Shown here: piece by piece, positions 19,548 through 26,276 of the stretch
Layout of the letters: each line of letters starts with the position of its first letter
Position numbering within the stretch: the stretch's first letter is position 1
NCBI GenBank assembly: GCA_016194905.1
Contig: JACQAP010000019.1
Span: 62,001-126,000, forward strand
Source of the DNA: Betaproteobacteria bacterium
GTDB lineage: Bacteria; Pseudomonadota; Gammaproteobacteria; Burkholderiales; JACQAP01
Reading direction: 5' to 3'
DNA: 64,000 nucleotides
Notes under the pieces: generated by a model
The model's database searches: none
What the model saw: the letters and a program-made list of their open reading frames with translations, nothing else
Told to the model about the DNA's origin: nothing
Program-made: the position numbers and the translations under genes

Positions 19548-19880
19548 ATGGAATCGCGATCGGTCATTTCCAATCTCGAAAAATTGCTGTCTGAAGGCAG
19601 GGAATCCGCGTTGCTGCGCTTCAGCCTGGGCAGCGAATACCTCAAACTACGCGAGATCTGGGTCGCGGTCTTCCATTTGAAGCGCGCGCTCGAGCTGGAT
19701 CCAAACTACTCCGCGGCGTGGAAGCTGCTGGGCATGGCGCTCGCCGACGGCGGAATTCTGAACGAAGCCCTCGACACTTATCGGCACGGCATCGAAGTCG
19801 CACAGCGGCGCGGCGATCAGCAGGCGGTCAAGGAAATGACCGTCTTCGCCCGGCGCCTGGAAAAGAAACTTTCATCCTGA
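19548..19880 (+). CDS. Small tetratricopeptide-repeat protein
   Basis: A 110-residue soluble protein with about two TPR units (around residues 25-60 and 62-95, including FHLKRALELDPNYSAAWKLLG). TPR folds mediate protein contacts; no catalytic domain is present. I chose the ATG at 19548; a TTG at 19533 is an alternative. It sits between kup and the DUF429 gene on the same strand. Its partner is unknown. Confidence 0.75.
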   Translation: MESRSVISNLEKLLSEGRESALLRFSLGSEYLKLREIWVAVFHLKRALELDPNYSAAWKLLGMALADGGILNEALDTYRHGIEVAQRRGDQQAVKEMTVFARRLEKKLSS

Positions 19881-19889
19881 ACGGTAACC

Positions 19890-20723
19890 ATGCGTAAATC
19901 GGCAGACTGGTCGGTCCACGGCGTGGATTTCACCAGCCGCCCGCGCATTCGCAAACCGATCACCGTCGCCAGTGGTCGCAGTCACCGTTCGGCATTTCGT
20001 CTCGACGCCCTCGAAGAATTTGCCGACTGGACGCATTTCGAAACCTGGCTGCAGCGCCCGGGGCCGTGGATAGCGGGGTTCGATTTTCCGTTCGGCCTGC
20101 CGCGTGAAGCGGTCGAGGATCTCGGCTGGCCGAAGTATTGGCCGCAGCTTGTTGCCTACTGCCGGCGTCAGGGACGCGACGAATTTCGTGCCGCACTGGA
20201 TCGGTATCGCGAAAGCCGGCCAGCCGGAAAGCGCTATGCGCACCGGGCCGCCGATCATCCGGCCAGCTCGCACAGCCCGCTCAAGCTGGTGAATCCGCCC
20301 GTGGGGCTCATGTTCCTGGAAGGCGCGCCGCGGTTGCTGGATGCCGGCGTGACCATCCCGGGGTTGCATCTGGGCGATCCGCAACGCGTGGCACTGGAAG
20401 CGTATCCCGGTTTTTCCGCGCGCCAAATGGTGAAAGCTTCGTACAAGAACGACGCCACAGCCAAACAGACGCCGGCGCGCAGACAGGCACGAAAGAGCAT
20501 GGTGAGCTTGCTGACGACAAGCGCCAATCCGTTCGGATTGGTCCTGACCGGATCGACACGACTGTTGAATTCCCTGGTCGGCGATGCAACCGGAGATCGG
20601 CTCGATGCGGTGCTTTGCGCGATGCAAGCAGCGTGGGCATGGCATCGGCGCGACGACAACTATGGATTGCCGGCGCACGTTGATCCCCTGGAAGGATGGA
20701 TCGTAACCGTGCCAGAGAAATGA
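19890..20723 (+). CDS. DUF429-family protein
   Basis: A 277-residue protein matching the DUF429 pattern: VHGVDFTS near the start, WIAGFDFPFGLPREA, and a C-terminal GDATGDRLDAVLCAMQAAWA in which two aspartates sit as in RNase H-fold proteins. DUF429 is thought to be a nuclease-like RNase H fold; the activity is not known to me. It begins 9 nt after the TPR gene. It is the last gene before the lower-GC accessory region, so it may be the core-side neighbour of the insertion. Confidence 0.8.
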   Translation: MRKSADWSVHGVDFTSRPRIRKPITVASGRSHRSAFRLDALEEFADWTHFETWLQRPGPWIAGFDFPFGLPREAVEDLGWPKYWPQLVAYCRRQGRDEFRAALDRYRESRPAGKRYAHRAADHPASSHSPLKLVNPPVGLMFLEGAPRLLDAGVTIPGLHLGDPQRVALEAYPGFSARQMVKASYKNDATAKQTPARRQARKSMVSLLTTSANPFGLVLTGSTRLLNSLVGDATGDRLDAVLCAMQAAWAWHRRDDNYGLPAHVDPLEGWIVTVPEK

Positions 20724-20848
20724 AAAGCTACCCTTCTCGGCTGAGGCCTTTTTGGCTCACCTTTGAATGCCGCGCGAATTCGATGCAGAAAAGAAGAATA
20801 CAGTAATGTTGCGGCGACACAACAACAACGTCGCGAGACGGAAGTTTA

Positions 20849-21334
20849 CTATGCCCATCGCTCCAATCGGAGTTTCACTTCTTCCTTGGGAAGCCGGCAA
20901 CGTACGTCCGCTGAAATACTGCTGAGGCCTTGGTACAGGACAGATTTTTGCACTCCAAGGAATTCCAACTGATCGAGAAGCCACAGCAACCCATACACCG
21001 TAATCTTTAGTTTTTCTGCTTCGCTTCGCAGACTTCTGTCGCTGGTTACAAGTGCATGCTGATCTCGCCGCGCAAGGACGAGGGCAAAGGAGTCGGGTAT
21101 AGAAAGTGTCGGGCGATTTTGTCGGATTACCTGTACGGAACTCAGTTCATCGGGGGTCAGCGCCAGTACACCTAACCCAAGCGTACGGAGATATGGTCCG
21201 TTGTAGTCCTGTAATTCGTCGTCGTACAGGACATCCGGGACAACCATGCTAAGACCGCAGTTGAACGCCGGGATCAAGATGGCCCCACGCTCTAGGTCGA
21301 TGAGCACAGATGTATCGGATACCAGGACAATCAT
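20849..21334 (-). CDS. PIN-domain protein (putative ribonuclease toxin)
   Basis: A 161-residue protein with the PIN start pattern IVLVSDTSVLIDLERG (Asp7 and nearby acids), a mid acidic site in SIPDSFALVLAR and the TSDRSL motif, which together form a Mg-binding acidic centre. PIN proteins are mostly RNases and common toxins of type II toxin-antitoxin pairs. It lies 9 nt downstream of the HTH/metalloprotease gene on the same strand, so that protein is the obvious candidate for control or antitoxin function. Base composition is lower in GC than the surrounding core genes. Toxicity is an inference. Confidence 0.8.
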   Translation of the reverse strand: MIVLVSDTSVLIDLERGAILIPAFNCGLSMVVPDVLYDDELQDYNGPYLRTLGLGVLALTPDELSSVQVIRQNRPTLSIPDSFALVLARRDQHALVTSDRSLRSEAEKLKITVYGLLWLLDQLEFLGVQKSVLYQGLSSISADVRCRLPKEEVKLRLERWA

Positions 21335-21343
21335 GACGTTCCA

Positions 21344-22408
21344 TCAAGCGACGGGTACCATCATTTTGTCCAGTTCCCGTACGCTTACATGCATGAGCTC
21401 TGCGACCTTGGCTTTAGATAGCACATCTTCGGCGACGGCCCGCAAGGACAGACGTTCCATGCGTTTTGGCTTTTCAGGCGGAATACTGTTCGGTTCCTTC
21501 GCCCCAAGTGCGTTTAAGCCTAGTGCCCTGATTTGCCCCCAGAGTCTTCCATACGCCGCCTTCGACAAAACGCCGAGCTGCGAGCAACGCACGACGAGGC
21601 ACGCGATGCTGACCTTGAACAGTTTCTGTAATTCCGCTAGTTCGCCAAACGAAATGGAGGTCCGGTTCCTGCCTAACAGGCGCTCCATCATTTCCTTGGC
21701 CATGAAAAATGCGCCGGCGAACCAGTCAGCGGCCTTCTCTTCCTCTTTATCGCTTAGCCCCGTGCACTCCAATACCAGGTGACCCAATTCGTGCGCCAAC
21801 GTAAATCGCTGTCGGAAGCCGTTATGCCTCTCGTTCACAACAATCACAGGTACATCTGGGAAACCCGGCCGTTGAACAAACGCTTTAGAGCCGGAGACTT
21901 CCTCCCCTAGGCCAACCACGATGACTTTGATCCCTTTCTCCTCCAGCAATTCAGCCATCACCGGAATGGGCTCGATGCCGAGCTGCCATTGCTCGCGCAA
22001 TTGAATCGCAGCGTTTTCAACGTCCTCAATGCGACTTATCTTGAAGGCGGGATTCTGAGGAGCGTTCCACGTGGCTGCCCCGTTGGGCACCAATTCTTCC
22101 AATTGGAGATACCGCTCGACGCGATCGAGCACCACGGCCTCGACGGCGCGCTCTTCCTTGGCGCCCGTGTGTGGCGCCTTACGGAAATCAACGCCTGTAA
22201 GCTCGATCTCCTGCGTACTTAATAGGTAATCTGGTCTTACCTGTAGTGTCTTCGCCAGAGCAAGCAAAACTGTTGAACTCGGCATCATTTCATTGCGTTC
22301 GTACTTGCCGATGGCCTGCGCAGATACCACTTCTCCGATTGCGGCTTCCAGTTCGCGCAACGACCAACCCTTCGCTTCCCTAGCCTTCTTCAATCGGTTC
22401 CCGATCAT
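21344..22408 (-). CDS. XRE-family HTH regulator fused to ImmA/IrrE-type metalloprotease (M78)
   Basis: A 354-residue two-domain protein. Residues 4-60 are a Cro/CI-type helix-turn-helix (NRLKKAREAKGWSLRELE...SAQAIGKYERNE). Residues about 140-250 are an ImmA/IrrE peptidase with HELGH (206-210) and a downstream acidic helix EEEKAADWFAGAFF that provides the third zinc ligand. The C-terminal 50 residues hold another small helical unit. Such proteins sense stress or phage and regulate by proteolysis. It is divergent from the bil operon, shares a promoter region with it, and is followed by a PIN gene. GGAGGG precedes the ATG at 22408. I infer that it controls the module. Confidence 0.88.
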   Translation of the reverse strand: MIGNRLKKAREAKGWSLRELEAAIGEVVSAQAIGKYERNEMMPSSTVLLALAKTLQVRPDYLLSTQEIELTGVDFRKAPHTGAKEERAVEAVVLDRVERYLQLEELVPNGAATWNAPQNPAFKISRIEDVENAAIQLREQWQLGIEPIPVMAELLEEKGIKVIVVGLGEEVSGSKAFVQRPGFPDVPVIVVNERHNGFRQRFTLAHELGHLVLECTGLSDKEEEKAADWFAGAFFMAKEMMERLLGRNRTSISFGELAELQKLFKVSIACLVVRCSQLGVLSKAAYGRLWGQIRALGLNALGAKEPNSIPPEKPKRMERLSLRAVAEDVLSKAKVAELMHVSVRELDKMMVPVA

Positions 22409-22435
22409 ATGGCTACCCTCCAGTTCTATTGTTCG

Positions 22436-22472
22436 GTTTACAAATTGACAAAAATAAGTATATTTTGTAAAC
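22436..22472. promoter_or_regulatory. Inverted repeat, likely operator between the HTH gene and bilA
   Basis: The 9-bp arms GTTTACAAA (22436-22444) and TTTGTAAAC (22464-22472) are separated by 19 bp. The right arm overlaps the -10 box of the rightward promoter, the left arm abuts its -35 box, and the pair surrounds the -10 box of the leftward one. This position suits repression by the adjacent HTH protein. Binding is an inference. Confidence 0.6.
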
Positions 22473-22473
22473 T
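22445..22473 (+). promoter_or_regulatory. Sigma70 promoter of the bil operon
   Basis: There is a perfect TTGACA (22445-22450), a 17-nt spacer and TAAACT (22468-22473). Predicted transcription starts near 22480 and gives a leader of about 300 nt before bilA. Confidence 0.7.
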
Positions 22474-22485
22474 TCGCGGTGTCAA
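22457..22485 (-). promoter_or_regulatory. Sigma70 promoter of the HTH-protease/PIN genes
   Basis: On the minus strand there is a perfect TTGACA (22485-22480), a 17-nt spacer and TATACT (22462-22457). It overlaps the bil promoter face to face, so the two polymerases cannot occupy the site together. The leader to the HTH gene is about 40 nt. Confidence 0.7.
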
Positions 22486-22781
22486 GGTAATAAATACAAA
22501 ATATTCAATCGAAACAAGGTTGGACTCGAAAGAAGCGTTAGCAGACTAACGCGCGGAGTGCCAAGAAGACCCAAGCAAAGGAAGGAGGGAAAAGAAAATG
22601 AACAACCAATAGAAAACGGCCAAGTACGAAACCGCACTTGGCCGTTGGGTTGAACGAGCGTTACGGCTACTCGCTCAGGTTTGGCGACCTTGATTGTCCG
22701 CAGCGATCTTCCCCCTGTCAAGCGCGGCCCCTGCTTTCCAGCAGGAATGACTTCCTTTGTCCGCAAATTATGGAGATTGTT
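22480..22781 (+). other. Structured 5' leader of the bil operon
   Basis: No gene longer than a few codons is visible here. The leader contains three perfect hairpins: GCGTTAG/CTAACGC (22535-22552), an 11-bp AACGGCCAAGT/ACTTGGCCGTT (22615-22646) and CCTGCT/AGCAGG (22731-22746). A mini-ORF at 22598-22612 reads M-N-N-Q-stop and has an excellent Shine-Dalgarno (GGAGGG). This looks like a regulated leader. It matches no riboswitch class I know. Confidence 0.5.
22598..22612 (+). other. Possible leader mini-ORF (MNNQ)
   Basis: ATG AAC AAC CAA TAG follows AAGGAGGGAAAAGAAA, the best ribosome site in the region, and ends 2 nt before the 11-bp hairpin. A role in leader-peptide control of the hairpin is possible but unproven. 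Confidence 0.3.
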
Positions 22782-23090
22782 ATGGAAAATCAGACTCAAA
22801 TGGCCGCAGAGGCCAAACAAAAAACCCTCGAACTTCAGGTCCGATATATAGGCGCTCGTCGCCGGTACGAGGATCCGCATGCGTCAGTGAATGAGACGCT
22901 TAGCTCGATAAAGCCGAAGGTGTTGGACTTCTTCGGACTGAGCGAGACGCCCGGACAGCAGGGTGGAAAGGTTTACACCTTCGCGCTGGGTGGTACGCCC
23001 TTGACCGATCCTTCCGTCACGCTAGGCAGATTGGCGGAAGGTCGGCATGAGCTAAAGCTCGATCTGATCGAGCAGCTCGAGCAGGGGTGA
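22782..23090 (+). CDS. bilA: Ubiquitin-like protein BilA (single beta-grasp domain)
   Basis: A 102-residue protein. Residues 14-95 read as one ubiquitin-like beta-grasp unit (KTLELQVRYIGARRRYE, then a helix and KVYTFALGGTPL, ending HELKLDLIEQL). It ends in Glu-Gln-Gly with no residues after the glycine, so the C-terminus is already in the form needed for E1 adenylation. I chose the ATG at 22782, which has GGAG 6 nt upstream; a longer reading from 22638 crosses the leader hairpin. It is followed 3 nt later by the E2 gene. The fold is inferred from pattern and context; many known BilA proteins have two such domains. It is the conjugated modifier. Confidence 0.8.
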   Translation: MENQTQMAAEAKQKTLELQVRYIGARRRYEDPHASVNETLSSIKPKVLDFFGLSETPGQQGGKVYTFALGGTPLTDPSVTLGRLAEGRHELKLDLIEQLEQG

Positions 23091-23093
23091 AGC

Positions 23094-23537
23094 ATGGCTT
23101 CGGACTTCGAGCTCAGTCTCTTTGAAGAAGAGTTGAGAGAGGTTCGAACCCTGCCTGAGGCAAACCGCTGGAAGCTCGAGCGGGACGAAACTGTTCCGCT
23201 CGGGCTGAAGGTGGAGATGCACAGCGTCAGGGATCCCGCAGAGCTATACCTGGCCAAGGTTCGCTGGACCAACTACTTTGCGCCGCCATCCCTCAAATTT
23301 CTCAACCTACAAACCGGTGCTGACAACGATGTGACCGCATGGCCCCTGTGTGGCGGCTTCCGACCAACGTCACTTGATGCGTGCGTATCGTGGACCGCTG
23401 AAGGCCATGTAGCACACCCCGAATGGGCAGGTTCATCGAAAGCAGCATTTCCGCGCGTCGAGACTCCAGTGCAATTCATCTTGCTCACCTTGCAGCGGGA
23501 ACTCGACACGTCTTACTCAGGAAGGGGACATTTGTGA
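23094..23537 (+). CDS. bilB: E2-like ubiquitin-conjugating protein BilB
   Basis: A 147-residue protein with an E2-like core: a beta-strand and FAPPSLKFLN (residues 62-71), the counterpart of the YPxxPPxxxF signature of eukaryotic E2s, followed by WPLCGGFRP and DACVSWTAEGHVAHPEW. Two cysteines could carry the thioester: Cys86 by spacing to the PP motif, and Cys97 by its conserved-looking setting. The C-terminal helix reads QFILLTLQRELDTSY. E2s take the modifier from E1 and transfer it to target lysines. The stop codon overlaps the GTG start of bilC (GTGA), so translation is coupled. Confidence 0.82.
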   Translation: MASDFELSLFEEELREVRTLPEANRWKLERDETVPLGLKVEMHSVRDPAELYLAKVRWTNYFAPPSLKFLNLQTGADNDVTAWPLCGGFRPTSLDACVSWTAEGHVAHPEWAGSSKAAFPRVETPVQFILLTLQRELDTSYSGRGHL

Positions 23538-24049
23538 GCGATGTTAAGTGGACTTTTCCGAACGATCTGCTTTCGACGTCGATCGACATGATGCGGATGC
23601 CTGGAGCGTCGGGGAATGAAGGCTTGGCGTTATGGTTAGGCCGTAGCGACGACGATGTCTCGATCTTCATTACGCATGTTATCGAAGTGTACGGCACAGG
23701 GTTCTCGACCTCACCGCTACACCTGTCACTGTCACGCCGCGCAATCAGCGAATTAACAGATCTTGCAGACCACCTTGGGGCATATCTGGTGGGGCAGATT
23801 CACTCACACCCCGGTCGATTTATCGATCTTTCAGAACTCGATCGTGTTCAGGGCTTTCGCGTACCAGATTTTCTTTCTGTCGTCTGTCCCAACTACGCAC
23901 AGTATGCAGATACGAGAATTGGTGATTGTGGCATTCACGTTTTCGAGCGCGGCGATTTCCGTCGCTTGTCGAATGCCGAGGCCAAAAACCGGATCCTCAT
24001 GTCGCCAGTCAGCGTAGAGAAAGTTTATTGCGAGGTGAATCGTGATTGA
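23534..24049 (+). CDS. bilC: JAMM/MPN-domain deubiquitinase-like protease BilC
   Basis: A 171-residue zinc metalloprotease with the complete JAMM motif: Glu29 (GNEGLALW), HSH (90-92), then seven residues to SELD (Ser100, Asp103). JAMM enzymes cut isopeptide bonds of ubiquitin-like proteins, either trimming the modifier or removing it from targets. The GTG at 23534 is preceded by AAGGGG and overlaps the bilB stop. Longer in-frame readings would lie inside bilB. Since BilA here already ends in Gly, deconjugation or recycling is the likelier job than C-terminal trimming. Confidence 0.9.
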   Translation: MSDVKWTFPNDLLSTSIDMMRMPGASGNEGLALWLGRSDDDVSIFITHVIEVYGTGFSTSPLHLSLSRRAISELTDLADHLGAYLVGQIHSHPGRFIDLSELDRVQGFRVPDFLSVVCPNYAQYADTRIGDCGIHVFERGDFRRLSNAEAKNRILMSPVSVEKVYCEVNRD

Positions 24050-25562
24050 TCTTACTTCGGCCGGTAGTCGGCCTTTGGCGACCGCCAAGGCGCTTGTAGG
24101 CGGGCAAATGAACGAGGTAGCCGTGTTTTCGAGGCTAGTCGTGCTCACCGGGGATGAATCCACGCTGAACACCGCGAATGGGCAGTGGTGTTTAGTCGAT
24201 TCCCTCAGACTTCTCGTGCGTGTCGTCGGAAGGCTAGCGGTGATTCTTCCGCCGGGATCAACTCGGCTCGAGACCGCAATTCGAGACGTATGCGCAAAAA
24301 TCTGCTTTCGGGCGCAGCCAACTATTGTCTGCGGTGATGGCAGGGAACTGTTGCGCGAGGCGACGGCAGTGTTGCATGTGGGCTCAATTGCGAGCGCGTC
24401 TTCAACTCATACCTGCGTCAATTCGAACGGCTGGGTCGCCAGGGTGTCATCCTGCGGCCGAGTATTGCCTGCTGACGTGTCCCAGCCCAATCCCATTGCC
24501 GCACTCACGGCCGCTTCCCTTGGCGTCACCGAGGTCTTCAAACGCATCGTAGGCGTCTCAGGGCAATCTGCGCCGCTGCTCGATCTTGTCGAATTCTCCC
24601 TCTTTGAGATGTCTACGGAATTCAACGGCCTTGGCCCAGAACTGCCAGAGGCCCTAGTTCTCCCCAACGGACTCTTGGTGGGAGCCGGCGCGATCGGAAA
24701 TGGCGTGGCTCTCCTGGCCTCTCAGCTTCCACTTACCGGACGGCTGCATGTCATCGATAAGCAAGAATACGGCGACGAAAATCTTGGCACGTGCGTGCTG
24801 CTGGAGACCGAAGGTTGGATAGGTCACAATAAGGCGACACGACTGGCGTCTTGGCTGGCCGCTAACAGCGGGCTGAGCGCAACCGGGGAGCACGCATTCG
24901 TCAAAGATGCACTCGGGGATGAAAAGGTCCGAACGTTAGCACCGCGCGTCGTTCTCAACGGGCTTGACGACGTAGAGGCGCGCCACGATGCACAACTGGC
25001 ATGGCCAGACCTCATGATCGACGGCGGAATCAGTGATGTCGGGGCCGCCGTGGTGGAACATCGGATCGATTCTCGGTCTCTCGCATGCTTGCGGTGCGCG
25101 TTTGAGGTTCGTGGCATCGACCACAAGGCAATTCAGGAAGAATTAACAGGATTGCCGGCGTCCGCATTGTCAGATCAGCAGAGGCTTCTTACCGAAGCAG
25201 ACGTAGCCGCCGCTGCCCCCGCTAAGCAAGCATGGCTCAAAGAACGTTTGCTCGAAAGAAAAACAATATGCTCCATCGTGACCGAGGCCGGTTTGAAGAA
25301 TCTTGGAGTCGACGCCGAGAAAGGCTTTCGCCCTTCCGTCCCGTTTGTCGCAACCGCCGCTGCCGCGCTGGTTTTCGCGGCGTTGATCAAGGCACTCCAA
25401 TATCCTACCCGGGAGTATGCGCAGAGCTTTACCATGGGCAATCTTTTCCTGGGACCTGAAAATTCTGCGGTTCTGAACCGGCCTGCGAAGAAATCGTGCC
25501 TTTGCGTTGTAAGTCGTTCTGCAATTGATGCGCTACGTAGACATCGCTTATCCTGTACTTAG
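24042..25562 (+). CDS. bilD: E1-like ubiquitin-activating enzyme BilD
   Basis: A 506-residue ThiF/E1-family protein. Residues 1-200 have no intact nucleotide motif and probably form the inactive adenylation-like half. Residues 205-480 are the active half: LLVGAGAIGN (211-220), VID (237-239), DENLG (245-249) and GHNKATRL (261-268). An inserted helical part (about 365-415) ends in RKTIC, making Cys410 the best candidate for the thioester; Cys349/Cys352 are alternatives. The C-terminus has a CLC pair. It starts at GTG within the end of bilC. The two-half layout fits the described Bil E1 and is unlike MoeB or ThiF. Confidence 0.88.
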   Translation: MIDLTSAGSRPLATAKALVGGQMNEVAVFSRLVVLTGDESTLNTANGQWCLVDSLRLLVRVVGRLAVILPPGSTRLETAIRDVCAKICFRAQPTIVCGDGRELLREATAVLHVGSIASASSTHTCVNSNGWVARVSSCGRVLPADVSQPNPIAALTAASLGVTEVFKRIVGVSGQSAPLLDLVEFSLFEMSTEFNGLGPELPEALVLPNGLLVGAGAIGNGVALLASQLPLTGRLHVIDKQEYGDENLGTCVLLETEGWIGHNKATRLASWLAANSGLSATGEHAFVKDALGDEKVRTLAPRVVLNGLDDVEARHDAQLAWPDLMIDGGISDVGAAVVEHRIDSRSLACLRCAFEVRGIDHKAIQEELTGLPASALSDQQRLLTEADVAAAAPAKQAWLKERLLERKTICSIVTEAGLKNLGVDAEKGFRPSVPFVATAAAALVFAALIKALQYPTREYAQSFTMGNLFLGPENSAVLNRPAKKSCLCVVSRSAIDALRRHRLSCT

Positions 25563-25593
25563 CGACTACACAAAAAGCTCTCTCCTCGACGTG

Positions 25594-25636
25594 CCAAAAT
25601 CAAATAACCACCCGAAAGTGGCTTTCTTGATTTTGG
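25594..25636 (+). terminator. Hairpin after bilD (also part of a tRNA-terminator duplication)
   Basis: An outer stem CCAAAATCAA/TTGATTTTGG (25594-25603 with 25627-25636) encloses an inner CCAC/GTGG stem. It could end bil transcription, although no clean T tract follows. Its 3' half resembles the terminator beside tRNA-Ala at 25870-25906. Confidence 0.5.
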
Positions 25637-25650
25637 TGGGGACGAGGGGA
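25617..25650. repeat. Duplicated tRNA-Ala 3' end plus terminator arm (possible att scar)
   Basis: The segment GTGGCTTTCTTGATTTTGGT and the following GGGGACGAGGG closely match 25892-25919, which is the terminator arm and 3' end of tRNA-Ala. A third, shorter copy of the tRNA 3' end lies at 26041-26057. Such duplications are left when elements integrate at tRNA 3' ends. Confidence 0.6.
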
Positions 25651-25745
25651 TAACACGCCAAATGTTTGTTGCGGCGGAGGCTAACTTATTATGCGAGTTA
25701 AGAGCGGCGCGCGAAGCCAATATCCGTGTCTCCCATTGCCTCTGC

Positions 25746-25840
25746 GATCCCGCCATGCCGAAACGCATGCGTTTCGAGACCGCCATCGCACTTGAGGTAT
25801 GCTGGCGTCCGGCGCGAGCGATGCTCGCTGGTCGAACTGA
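25746..25840. repeat. Imperfect about 95-bp repeat with palindrome, copy 1
   Basis: It begins GCGATCCCGCCAT and contains the 18-bp perfect palindrome CGAAACGCATGCGTTTCG (25759-25776). The later part (CTGGCGTCCGGCGCGAGC) is also found in copy 2 at 26079-26165. The two copies flank tRNA-Ala. No gene is visible in this stretch. Confidence 0.65.
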
Positions 25841-25869
25841 GGGAGTGCGATCTGCCCCTGCATCTCACC

Positions 25870-25905
25870 AAATAAGAAAGCCACCTCAGGGGTGGCTTTC
25901 TTATT

Positions 25906-25906
<1 letters not shown>
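25870..25906 (-). terminator. Terminator of tRNA-Ala
   Basis: A 16-bp stem (25870-25885 with 25891-25906) has a 5-nt loop. On the minus strand the 3' arm ends in GGTGGCTTTCTTATTT. It directly follows the tRNA CCA end. Confidence 0.75.
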
Positions 25907-25981
<75 letters not shown>

Positions 25982-26078
25982 AGTATTCGTTTACGCTTTC
26001 AATTCGCCGGAGCATATCTTACAACTGCTCAGCCTTTTCATGGAGGAGACGAGGAGGTTGTGTCGATATTGCCTTAAG

Positions 26079-26165: not shown

Positions 26166-26223
26166 CGACGTAACGCGCCGAAGGCGCATTAGTCTGCACT
26201 GAAACTCCCTGACGTCGTTTTCA

Positions 26224-26276
26224 AACTCCCGACCTTCGCATTGCGAACGCGACTCTCCTAAGCTGAGCTACGTCCC
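26224..26276 (-). pseudogene. Decayed tRNA-Ala copy
   Basis: 53 nt match the tRNA-Ala from acceptor base 2 into the T-arm, with about four differences in the D-arm that break the structure. The 3' part (rest of the T-arm, acceptor strand and CCA) is missing. It is not expected to be functional. Confidence 0.8.

What the first reader, a model, noticed from the sequence alone, without database searches (positions are those of the whole stretch)
22782..25562. Complete bacterial ubiquitin-like conjugation operon (bilABCD)
Seen: four overlapping or nearly touching plus-strand genes with a small beta-grasp-like protein, an E2-like protein with FAPPSLKFLN, a JAMM protease with E29/HSH/SELD, and a ThiF-type E1 with GAGAIGN and a large non-catalytic N-terminal half. 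Known: this is the gene order of the Bil (bacterial ISG15-like) anti-phage systems, in which a ubiquitin-like protein is attached to phage structural proteins. Inference: this is a functional defence operon. E2 plus JAMM plus a double-domain E1 excludes ordinary sulfur-carrier pathways.
Basis: partly seen in the sequence, partly recalled or inferred. Interest (0 to 1): 0.95.

Follow-up and report, generated by a model that had tools for sequence, protein, structure and literature searches.

The report
Divergent bacterial ubiquitin-like conjugation operon
This is a four-gene bacterial operon that looks able to attach a ubiquitin-like protein to other proteins; it belongs to a branch apart from the studied Bil anti-phage systems, and its two main enzymes carry altered active-site residues.

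Summary
Four coupled genes (Ubl 22782-23090, E2 23094-23537, JAMM 23534-24049, E1 24042-25562) form a complete Ubl-E2-JAMM-E1 operon. Profile searches put JAMM and E1 with BilC and BilD. Predicted structures give one beta-grasp domain for the Ubl and an E2 fold whose top VIA-align match is the Bil E2 of 8tz0. Catalytic residues are present. With an HTH-ImmA gene and a PIN-like gene, the operon fills a ~5.1-kb insertion beside tRNA-Ala that three same-genus genomes lack. It is not a copy of the studied Bil systems: 11 E1s (window, other Pseudomonadota, Deinococcus, Actinomycetota) split from 11 classical ones (support 99/97), with a different E2 motif, and with threonine in 11 of 11 where the others have, in 11 of 11, the NLxR arginine that contacts ATP phosphates in ThiF and MoeB. 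Eight of ten Ubls end at glycine and need no trimming. Best reading: a Bil-type conjugation system, probably anti-phage; chemistry and defence are inferred. New variant of a known kind. The key Bil papers could not be read, so prior description is possible.

The parts
20727..25869 (.). ~5.1-kb insertion carrying the PIN-like gene, HTH-ImmA gene and the whole operon, next to tRNA-Ala
   Evidence: In a same-genus genome (G002) window 19801-20726 and 25870-25981 match adjacent DNA and the flanking genes are about 190 bp apart; in G003 about 525 bp; in G001 2.4 kb with other ORFs. GC 54.5% (20727-25560) against 60.8% for the window.
20849..21334 (-). PIN-like protein (161 aa), second gene of the divergent pair
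   Evidence: Weak Pfam PIN match, E 0.078, below cut-off; 25% identity, E 1e-9, to the gene in the same place beside a Bil operon in Hymenobacter L021.
21344..22408 (-). HTH + ImmA/IrrE (M78) metalloprotease, likely regulator
   Evidence: Pfam HTH_3 60 bits and Peptidase_M78 64 bits, both over cut-off; PADLOC RmrA 2e-49, capP 3e-15, capH 4e-9; 35% identity, E 4e-63, to L021.
22436..22504 (.). Operator-like region: inverted repeats GTTTACAAA/TTTGTAAAC and ATATTTTGTA/TACAAAATAT over divergent promoter-like sites
   Evidence: consensus matches only; in 22300-26000 five promoter-like sites found against a mean of 1.6 in shuffles.
22782..23090 (+). A: ubiquitin-like protein, 102 aa, one beta-grasp domain, ends ..LEQG
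   Evidence: AlphaFold2 pLDDT 82.9 for the best of five models; Foldseek/VIA matches to SUMO, ubiquitin, FAT10 and the Bil Ubl chain 8tyx_A.
23085..23087 (+). Codon of the terminal Gly102 of the Ubl, followed directly by the stop
   Evidence: Gly invariant in 10 of 10 Ubls of the group; last residue in 8, followed by two residues in L003 and L015.
23094..23537 (+). B: E2-like protein, 147 aa
   Evidence: pLDDT 84.6; VIA-align best 8tz0_D, Z 11.3, 121 residues, rmsd 2.6; profile-profile to BilB-type E2s, E 4e-7, probability 92.7%.
23382..23384 (+). Codon of E2 Cys97, predicted thioester cysteine
   Evidence: Invariant in 10 of 10; aligned with Cys138 of the BilB-type E2 L005.
23534..24049 (+). 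C: JAMM metalloprotease, 171 aa, GTG start
   Evidence: best PDB profile hit BilC 8tyx_B, E 6e-13.
24042..25562 (+). D: E1, 506 aa, GTG start; N-terminal inactive half, active ThiF half, Cys domain
   Evidence: best PDB hit BilD 8tyz_A, E 9e-18; profile-profile to classical BilD-type E1s E 5e-28 over 453 columns.
24789..24791 (+). Codon of E1 Thr250, where classical Bil E1s have the NLxR arginine
   Evidence: Thr 11 of 11 in this group, Arg 11 of 11 in the classical group.
25269..25271 (+). Codon of E1 Cys410, predicted catalytic cysteine
   Evidence: Invariant in 22 of 22 E1s of the two groups; aligned with Cys417 of L005.
25632..25650 (+). Imperfect copy of the tRNA-Ala 3'-end sequence (possible att remnant)
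   Evidence: Two matches in the window (this one with 1 mismatch, the tRNA itself with 0) against 0 in 100 shuffles.
25906..25981 (-). tRNA-Ala(cgc) beside the insertion
   Evidence: ARAGORN finds the same tRNA at this site in three of three same-genus genomes.

Best explanation
A complete Bil-type ubiquitin-like conjugation system of a separate, divergent lineage, most likely anti-phage. Proposed mechanism: the E1 (D) adenylates the free C-terminal glycine of the Ubl (A), using K264 and D309 (shown: both conserved; inferred: activity). It then forms a thioester on C410, passes the Ubl to C97 of the E2 (B), and the E2 attaches it to lysines of a target protein, perhaps a phage structural protein as in studied Bil systems (inferred). 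The JAMM (C) removes Ubl from wrong targets; in this genome it is not needed to trim the Ubl, which is encoded ending at Gly (shown by sequence). Because this E1 group has Thr in place of the NLxR arginine, ATP phosphates are probably held by other residues, such as the group-specific R134 or the N-terminal R10 (hypothesis). The divergent HTH-ImmA protein probably represses the operon and is inactivated under stress such as DNA damage (inferred by analogy with CapH+CapP); the PIN-like protein may be an additional RNase effector of the same module.
For: Gene order and coupling. BilC and BilD hits in PADLOC and as best PDB profile hits. E1 profile-profile E 5e-28 over 453 columns with C410 on BilD C417. 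Beta-grasp Ubl. E2 fold with a Bil E2 as top VIA row. Invariant catalytic residues in relatives. Six relatives with all four genes. Insertion beside tRNA-Ala, absent at that site in three same-genus genomes, one of which has other cargo with a Fic motif there. Neighbours of relatives: PD-Lambda-2_B in L011 and L012, type I HsdS in L012, a JAB-ThiF gene in L009.
Against: No test of function exists. Thr250 could mean a weak or altered E1: in yeast Tcd1 a Thr at this place is said to fail to contribute to ATP activation, and R128A in Tcd2 cut activity by 91% (PMC13139853, passages). [quoted passage not shown] Ubl profiles of the two groups do not match each other by sequence (probability 0.4%). 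The Ubl model rests on one good model of five. E2 Foldseek E-values are weak, best 2e-3, and the top VIA rows are tied with human E2Q. H+8 of the BilB CEHH motif is kept in only 6 of 10 of this group. Rarity: the E2 profile was found only in the own genome among 399 of the order and 369 of the class (in each genome at most ten candidates of a loose first look were scored).
Confidence: 0.78

Rival explanations
1. A conjugation system of the Bub kind (bacterial ubiquitination-like), a different family of Ubl-E2-E1-JAB operons, rather than Bil.
For: Bub operons are also associated with HTH+peptidase (CapH+CapP) regulators: 219 of 544 have CapW or CapH+CapP (PMC13373217, passages). Row 6d of Iyer 2006, which I take to be the Bub type (my inference), occurs in many Betaproteobacteria (PMC1779556, passages).
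Against: PADLOC and PDB profile hits name BilC and BilD. Row 6d has a fifth helical protein and a JAB with an extra N-terminal domain; here the only plus-strand ORF of 50 aa or more that starts between the E1 and the tRNA (25662-25970) overlaps the tRNA and lies largely in DNA shared with same-genus genomes that lack the operon, and the JAMM aligns to BilC from near its first residue (profile 6-124 on BilC 10-129). Gene order is the Bil one.
Confidence: 0.08
2. A real Bil-like conjugation system whose role is not phage defence but control of a stress response or of the mobile segment that carries it.
For: HTH-ImmA plus PIN resembles a toxin-antitoxin-like module; the same pair stands beside Ubl operons in L021 and L006. 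It lies in a mobile insertion. [quoted passage not shown]
Against: Studied Bil systems defend against phage (recalled; the primary papers are not held). Neighbours of relatives include known or candidate defence genes.
Confidence: 0.2
3. A decaying or enzymatically dead system.
For: Thr in place of the ATP-contacting arginine. Relative L010 is broken by transposon-like genes.
Against: All four frames are intact and coupled; K264, D309, both catalytic cysteines, zinc cysteines and JAMM residues are conserved across Pseudomonadota, Deinococcus and Actinomycetota. The Thr is fixed in the whole group, so it is not recent decay.
Confidence: 0.07
4. An ordinary sulfur-carrier pathway (ThiS/MoaD with ThiF/MoeB and a JAMM).
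For: The E1 half is ThiF-like and such carriers end in glycine.
Against: Separate E2-fold protein with a conserved cysteine, two-domain E1 with a Cys domain, and one terminal Gly preceded by Gln or Ser rather than Gly-Gly.
Confidence: 0.02

Closest known systems
Bil (BilABCD), which I equate with row 6c of Iyer et al. 2006; structures 8tyx, 8tyz, 8tz0
   Same: Ubl-E2-JAMM-E1 order; E1 with inactive and active adenylation halves plus Cys domain (C410 = C417); zinc CxxC/CxC; JAMM with E, HxH, S, D; E2 fold with catalytic Cys and Glu at +6.
   Different: E1 split from the classical group, 99/97. E2 motif C-x3-T-x-EG-x3-H-x-EW instead of C-x5-EYH. Thr for Arg in the E1 NLxR motif. Ubl not detectably related at profile level, single beta-grasp domain, no tail after Gly in 8 of 10.
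Bub (bacterial ubiquitination-like)
   Same: Ubl, E2, E1 and JAB in one operon (recalled and row 6d), often with an HTH+peptidase regulator (PMC13373217, passages).
   Different: No fifth helical protein and no N-terminal JAB extension (compared with row 6d of PMC1779556, which I equate with Bub); best hits are Bil.
Type II CBASS Cap2/Cap3
   Same: E1, E2 and JAB chemistry (recalled); a C-terminal Gly on the modifier (PMC10097602, passages).
   Different: Here E1 and E2 are separate, and none of the six proteins of the insertion matched a cGAS-type family.
CapH+CapP and RmrA-type HTH-ImmA proteins
   Same: HTH plus ImmA metalloprotease, divergent from the operon.
   Different: Both parts are fused in one protein here, followed by a PIN-like gene.

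Membership tests
Bil in the broad sense | Four-gene operon Ubl, E2, JAMM, E1 | tested here: met
   same in 6 of 7 close relatives (the seventh, L010, is truncated) and in L002, L003, L015.
Bil in the broad sense | E1 with inactive plus active adenylation domain and a Cys domain holding the catalytic Cys (Cys417 in PMC11354881) | tested here: met
   Profile-profile E 5e-28 over 453 columns; C410 aligned with C417.
Bil in the broad sense | Ubl with beta-grasp fold and C-terminal Gly (one or two domains; chain 8tyx_A has 82 residues in Foldseek) | tested here: met
   Model and fold search; Gly102. The review PMC11354881 (passage) describes BilA as two-domain; here it is one, as the 97-residue Ubl of L005 appears to be.
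Bil in the broad sense | JAMM metalloprotease related to BilC | tested here: met
   PADLOC BilC 4.5e-8; PDB 8tyx_B 5.5e-13; E29, H90, H92, S100, D103 invariant. Activity not tested.
Bil in the broad sense | E2 with the CEHH motif (C138, E144, H146, H151) | tested here: inconclusive
   C97 and E103 (+6) met. H105 (+8) is in the window protein but only in 6 of 10 of the group; a His stands at +11, not +13, invariant 10 of 10. Fold match to 8tz0_D Z 11.3.
Bil in the broad sense | Conjugates the Ubl to phage proteins and protects against phage | not testable with these tools
   Needs experiment.
Classical Bil lineage (E1 group that holds L005, whose Cys numbers equal the published ones) | E1 falls inside that group and has the NLxR arginine | tested here: not met
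   Window lies in the other group, split support 99/97, root not known; Thr250 instead of Arg.
Bub (taken as row 6d of PMC1779556) | Fifth helical protein in the operon | tested here: not met
   No gene-like ORF between the E1 and the tRNA; ORF 25662-25970 overlaps the tRNA and lies largely in DNA shared with same-genus genomes without the operon. The equation of Bub with row 6d is my inference.
Bub (taken as row 6d of PMC1779556) | JAB with an N-terminal alpha+beta domain | tested here: not met
   171-aa JAMM; profile positions 6-124 align to residues 10-129 of BilC.
ThiS/MoaD sulfur-carrier pathway | Single-domain E1 and no E2 | tested here: not met
   E2 fold present; two-domain E1.

The most novel reading that the evidence does not exclude
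A second, mechanistically distinct Bil lineage, spread through Pseudomonadota, Deinococcus and Actinomycetota: its E1 works without the arginine that otherwise holds the ATP phosphates in ThiF/MoeB-type enzymes and uses an arginine of its inactive half or N-terminus (R134 or R10) instead; its E2 uses a compact Cys-Glu-His site; its Ubl is mostly made already mature; and in some genomes it is wired to an HTH-ImmA sensor and a PIN nuclease as a two-armed immune module.
Probability: 0.32. Interest if true: 0.65.

Novelty: new variant of a known kind. Interest (0 to 1): 0.52.

Why it matters
Bacterial ubiquitin-like conjugation was recognised recently, and its mechanism is known from few systems (recalled). 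A sister lineage with the same four parts but fixed changes at the E1 ATP site and the E2 active site would show which features of the chemistry are obligatory. It is also easily overlooked: in the Deinococcus record the Ubl, E2 and JAMM are annotated as 'hypothetical protein', and in Janibacter the E2 has no listed annotation. The recurrent pairing with HTH-ImmA and PIN-like genes suggests a shared trigger that can be tested.

Tried and rejected
Single-sequence searches of the Ubl and E2 against Pfam, PADLOC, NCBIfam and PDB gave nothing of use; profile searches of PDB sequences for both also gave only chance hits. Structure was what settled them. So I found no phage-borne copy.

An E2 fused to the E1 N-terminus (Pfam Prok-E2_C, weak here, E 0.021, below cut-off) was considered, as in the 2006 analysis, and rejected: profile-profile alignment places that half on the same half of the BilD-type E1s, which PMC11354881 calls the inactive adenylation domain.

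A tRNA integration with a clean direct repeat at both ends was looked for. A tRNA 3'-end-like copy was found only on the tRNA side, so the mode of insertion is open; none of the six scanned proteins of the insertion is an integrase.

L010 was left out of the Ubl, E2 and JAMM comparisons because its operon is cut by transposon-like genes. L004 and L006 are in neither motif group; L006 also has Thr at the NLxR place and L004 has Arg, so Thr there is not unique to this group. The motif expressions were written from these same sequences. The E1 tree has four long branches (L004, L006, L007, L024), three rows of odd composition (L015, L018, L023) and a midpoint root for drawing only.

The primary Bil and Bub papers are not held. 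Claims on them rest on passages of PMC11354881, PMC13373217 and PMC1779556, and on recall where marked. I cannot say that this lineage is unpublished.

Prevalence: the E1 profile matched 8 of 398 genomes of the phylum; apart from the own genome the best were two at E 2e-16, the other five between 8e-8 and 3e-5.

Full report
What is there. The JAMM and E1 start at GTG. The named motifs are all present.

Family evidence. Against PADLOC the JAMM matches BilC (E 4.5e-8) and the E1 matches BilD (E 9.2e-26); the Ubl and E2 match nothing in Pfam, PADLOC or NCBIfam. A scan of genome contigs with an E1 alignment gave 17 loci with relatives out of 154 stretches that matched a pattern. Seven have E1s 45-56% identical to the window's; six of these carry all four genes in the same order, and the seventh, L010, is cut by transposon-like genes. 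With the alignments from these relatives, the best PDB hits are BilC 8tyx_B for the JAMM (5.5e-13) and BilD 8tyz_A for the E1 (9.4e-18).

Structures. The Ubl model has the order beta-beta-alpha-beta-alpha-beta (pLDDT 82.9 for the best of five models, the other four under 55) and matches SUMO, ubiquitin, ISG15 and the Bil Ubl chain 8tyx_A in Foldseek (probability 1.00, E about 1e-4 to 3e-4), and FAT10 and archaeal ubiquitin at Z about 10-11 in VIA-align. The E2 model (pLDDT 84.6) matches E2 enzymes weakly in Foldseek (best E 2e-3) but more clearly in VIA-align, where the first row is 8tz0_D, a chain of the bacterial E1-E2-Ubl complex (Z 11.3, 121 residues, rmsd 2.6; a human E2 of the E2Q kind follows at Z 10.8, which is a tie). 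No E1 model was made, so the reach of its cysteine rests on alignment.

Active sites. E1: profile-profile alignment to eight classical Bil E1s covers 453 columns (E 5e-28) and puts C410 on C417 of L005, whose cysteine numbers 417 (E1) and 138 (E2) equal those given for BilD and BilB in PMC11354881 (passages). C410, the CxxC/CxC cysteines, the three motif glycines, D239, K264, D309 and R314 are shared by 22 of 22 E1s of the two groups. E2: C97 aligns with C138 (E 4e-7). JAMM: E29, H90, H92, S100, D103 invariant in 7 of 7 and in a wider set of 6. Ubl: Gly102 invariant in 10 of 10; it is the last residue in 8, while the two actinobacterial ones carry two more residues (..SG-SR..QG-AS). That pattern suits a JAMM able to trim, and a lineage in which trimming became unnecessary (inference).

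A separate lineage. In a maximum-likelihood tree of 24 E1s, 11 (window, L008-L014, Deinococcus L002, Janibacter L003, Nucisporomicrobium L015) are split with support 99/97 from 11 that include L005; the root is not known, and two rows, L004 and L006, belong to neither group. The E2 motif follows the tree: C-x3-T-x-EG-x3-H-x-EW in 10 of the 11 (L010 has no E2 left) and C-x5-EYH in 11 of 11; L004 and L006 show neither. At one column the two E1 groups are fixed for different residues with mechanistic meaning: Thr in 11 of 11, Arg in 11 of 11. In yeast Tcd2 the equivalent arginine (ThiF Arg70, MoeB Arg73) coordinates the ATP phosphates; its loss cut activity by 91%, and the paralogue Tcd1 with Thr there is said not to contribute to ATP activation (PMC13139853, passages). 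By my motif assignment K264 and D309 correspond to the conserved MoeB Lys86 and Asp130 of the same passages. So either this group uses another arginine (R134, invariant only here, or R10, near where an arginine finger would be expected) or its E1 is slow. [quoted passage not shown] L006, a different and long-branched system, also has Thr at this place.

Surroundings. In the same-genus genome G002 the two flanking genes are about 190 bp apart, and the DNA matching window 20726 and 25870 lies next to each other, so about 5.1 kb, holding the PIN-like gene, the HTH-ImmA gene and the operon, is an insertion beside tRNA-Ala(cgc). In G003 the flanks are about 525 bp apart; in G001 about 2.4 kb, with other genes between them, one with a Fic motif recognised by eye. 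The insertion has 54.5% GC against 60.8% for the window. The E1 occurs once in the own genome and in none of the three relatives.

Regulator. The HTH-ImmA protein resembles CapH and CapP fused. An ImmA-type gene stands upstream in 7 of 11 loci of the group: window, L002, L008, L011, L012 and L013 by Pfam (L011 just under the cut-off) and L015 by similarity. None was recognised in L009, L014 or the broken L010; L003's upstream proteins were not scanned. The M78 family has two members over the cut-off, and one below, in the whole own genome. The same PIN plus HTH-ImmA pair lies beside a classical Bil operon in Hymenobacter L021 and beside the L006 operon. Two overlapping inverted repeats and divergent promoter-like sites lie between the two transcription units. 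In L011 and L012 the upstream gene is PD-Lambda-2_B (E about 1e-140). PMC13373217 (passages) reports DNA-damage-activated regulators beside Bub, CBASS and a few Bil operons, the precedent for the proposed trigger.

Function. The likeliest mechanism is the thioester relay D-C410 to B-C97 to a target lysine, reversed by C. Everything from chemistry to phage protection is inference from homology. The primary Bil papers could not be read here, so the anti-phage role of Bil is taken from recall and from the way the cited passages name it.

Verdict. The refinement is that this is a sister lineage of the studied Bil systems with its own E1 and E2 active-site signatures, rare and scattered: the E2 profile was found only in the own genome among 399 genomes of its order and 369 of its class (not every first-look candidate was scored).

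Noticed in passing
L009:1554-2939: A JAB-ThiF fusion protein (ThiF 2e-36, weak Prok-JAB), then a small ORF and an SDH-type protease, lie directly upstream of the relative's Ubl operon: two ubiquitin-like systems may sit side by side.
   Followed up: partly
L011:4271-5503 and L012:4226-5461: The gene upstream of the Ubl operon is PD-Lambda-2_B (PADLOC E about 1e-140), a component of another anti-phage system, in two relatives.
   Followed up: partly
L044 (G001:C84), same chromosomal site as the window insertion: The tRNA-Ala site of a same-genus genome holds different cargo, including a protein with a Fic motif (HPFPDGNGR, by eye): a small hotspot of variable genes.
   Followed up: partly
L021:2947-4844 and L006:1224-3007: PIN-like plus HTH-ImmA gene pairs stand divergently beside ubiquitin-like operons of other lineages, as in the window; the pair may be a travelling module.
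   Followed up: partly
L010:5000-7100: The relative's operon is interrupted within the E1 gene by transposon-like genes; Ubl, E2 and JAMM were not found upstream there.
   Followed up: no
window 22615-22646: A strong hairpin (14-bp stem) lies in the leader of the operon, terminator-like on the minus strand; role unknown.
   Followed up: no
window 26221-26276: A second, partial tRNA-Ala-like copy and a repeated 51-nt unit (25744 and 26079) lie beside the intact tRNA.
   Followed up: partly
L014:2677-5115: A large AAA ATPase with TPR repeats is the nearest large upstream gene in this relative; no ImmA gene was recognised there.
   Followed up: no
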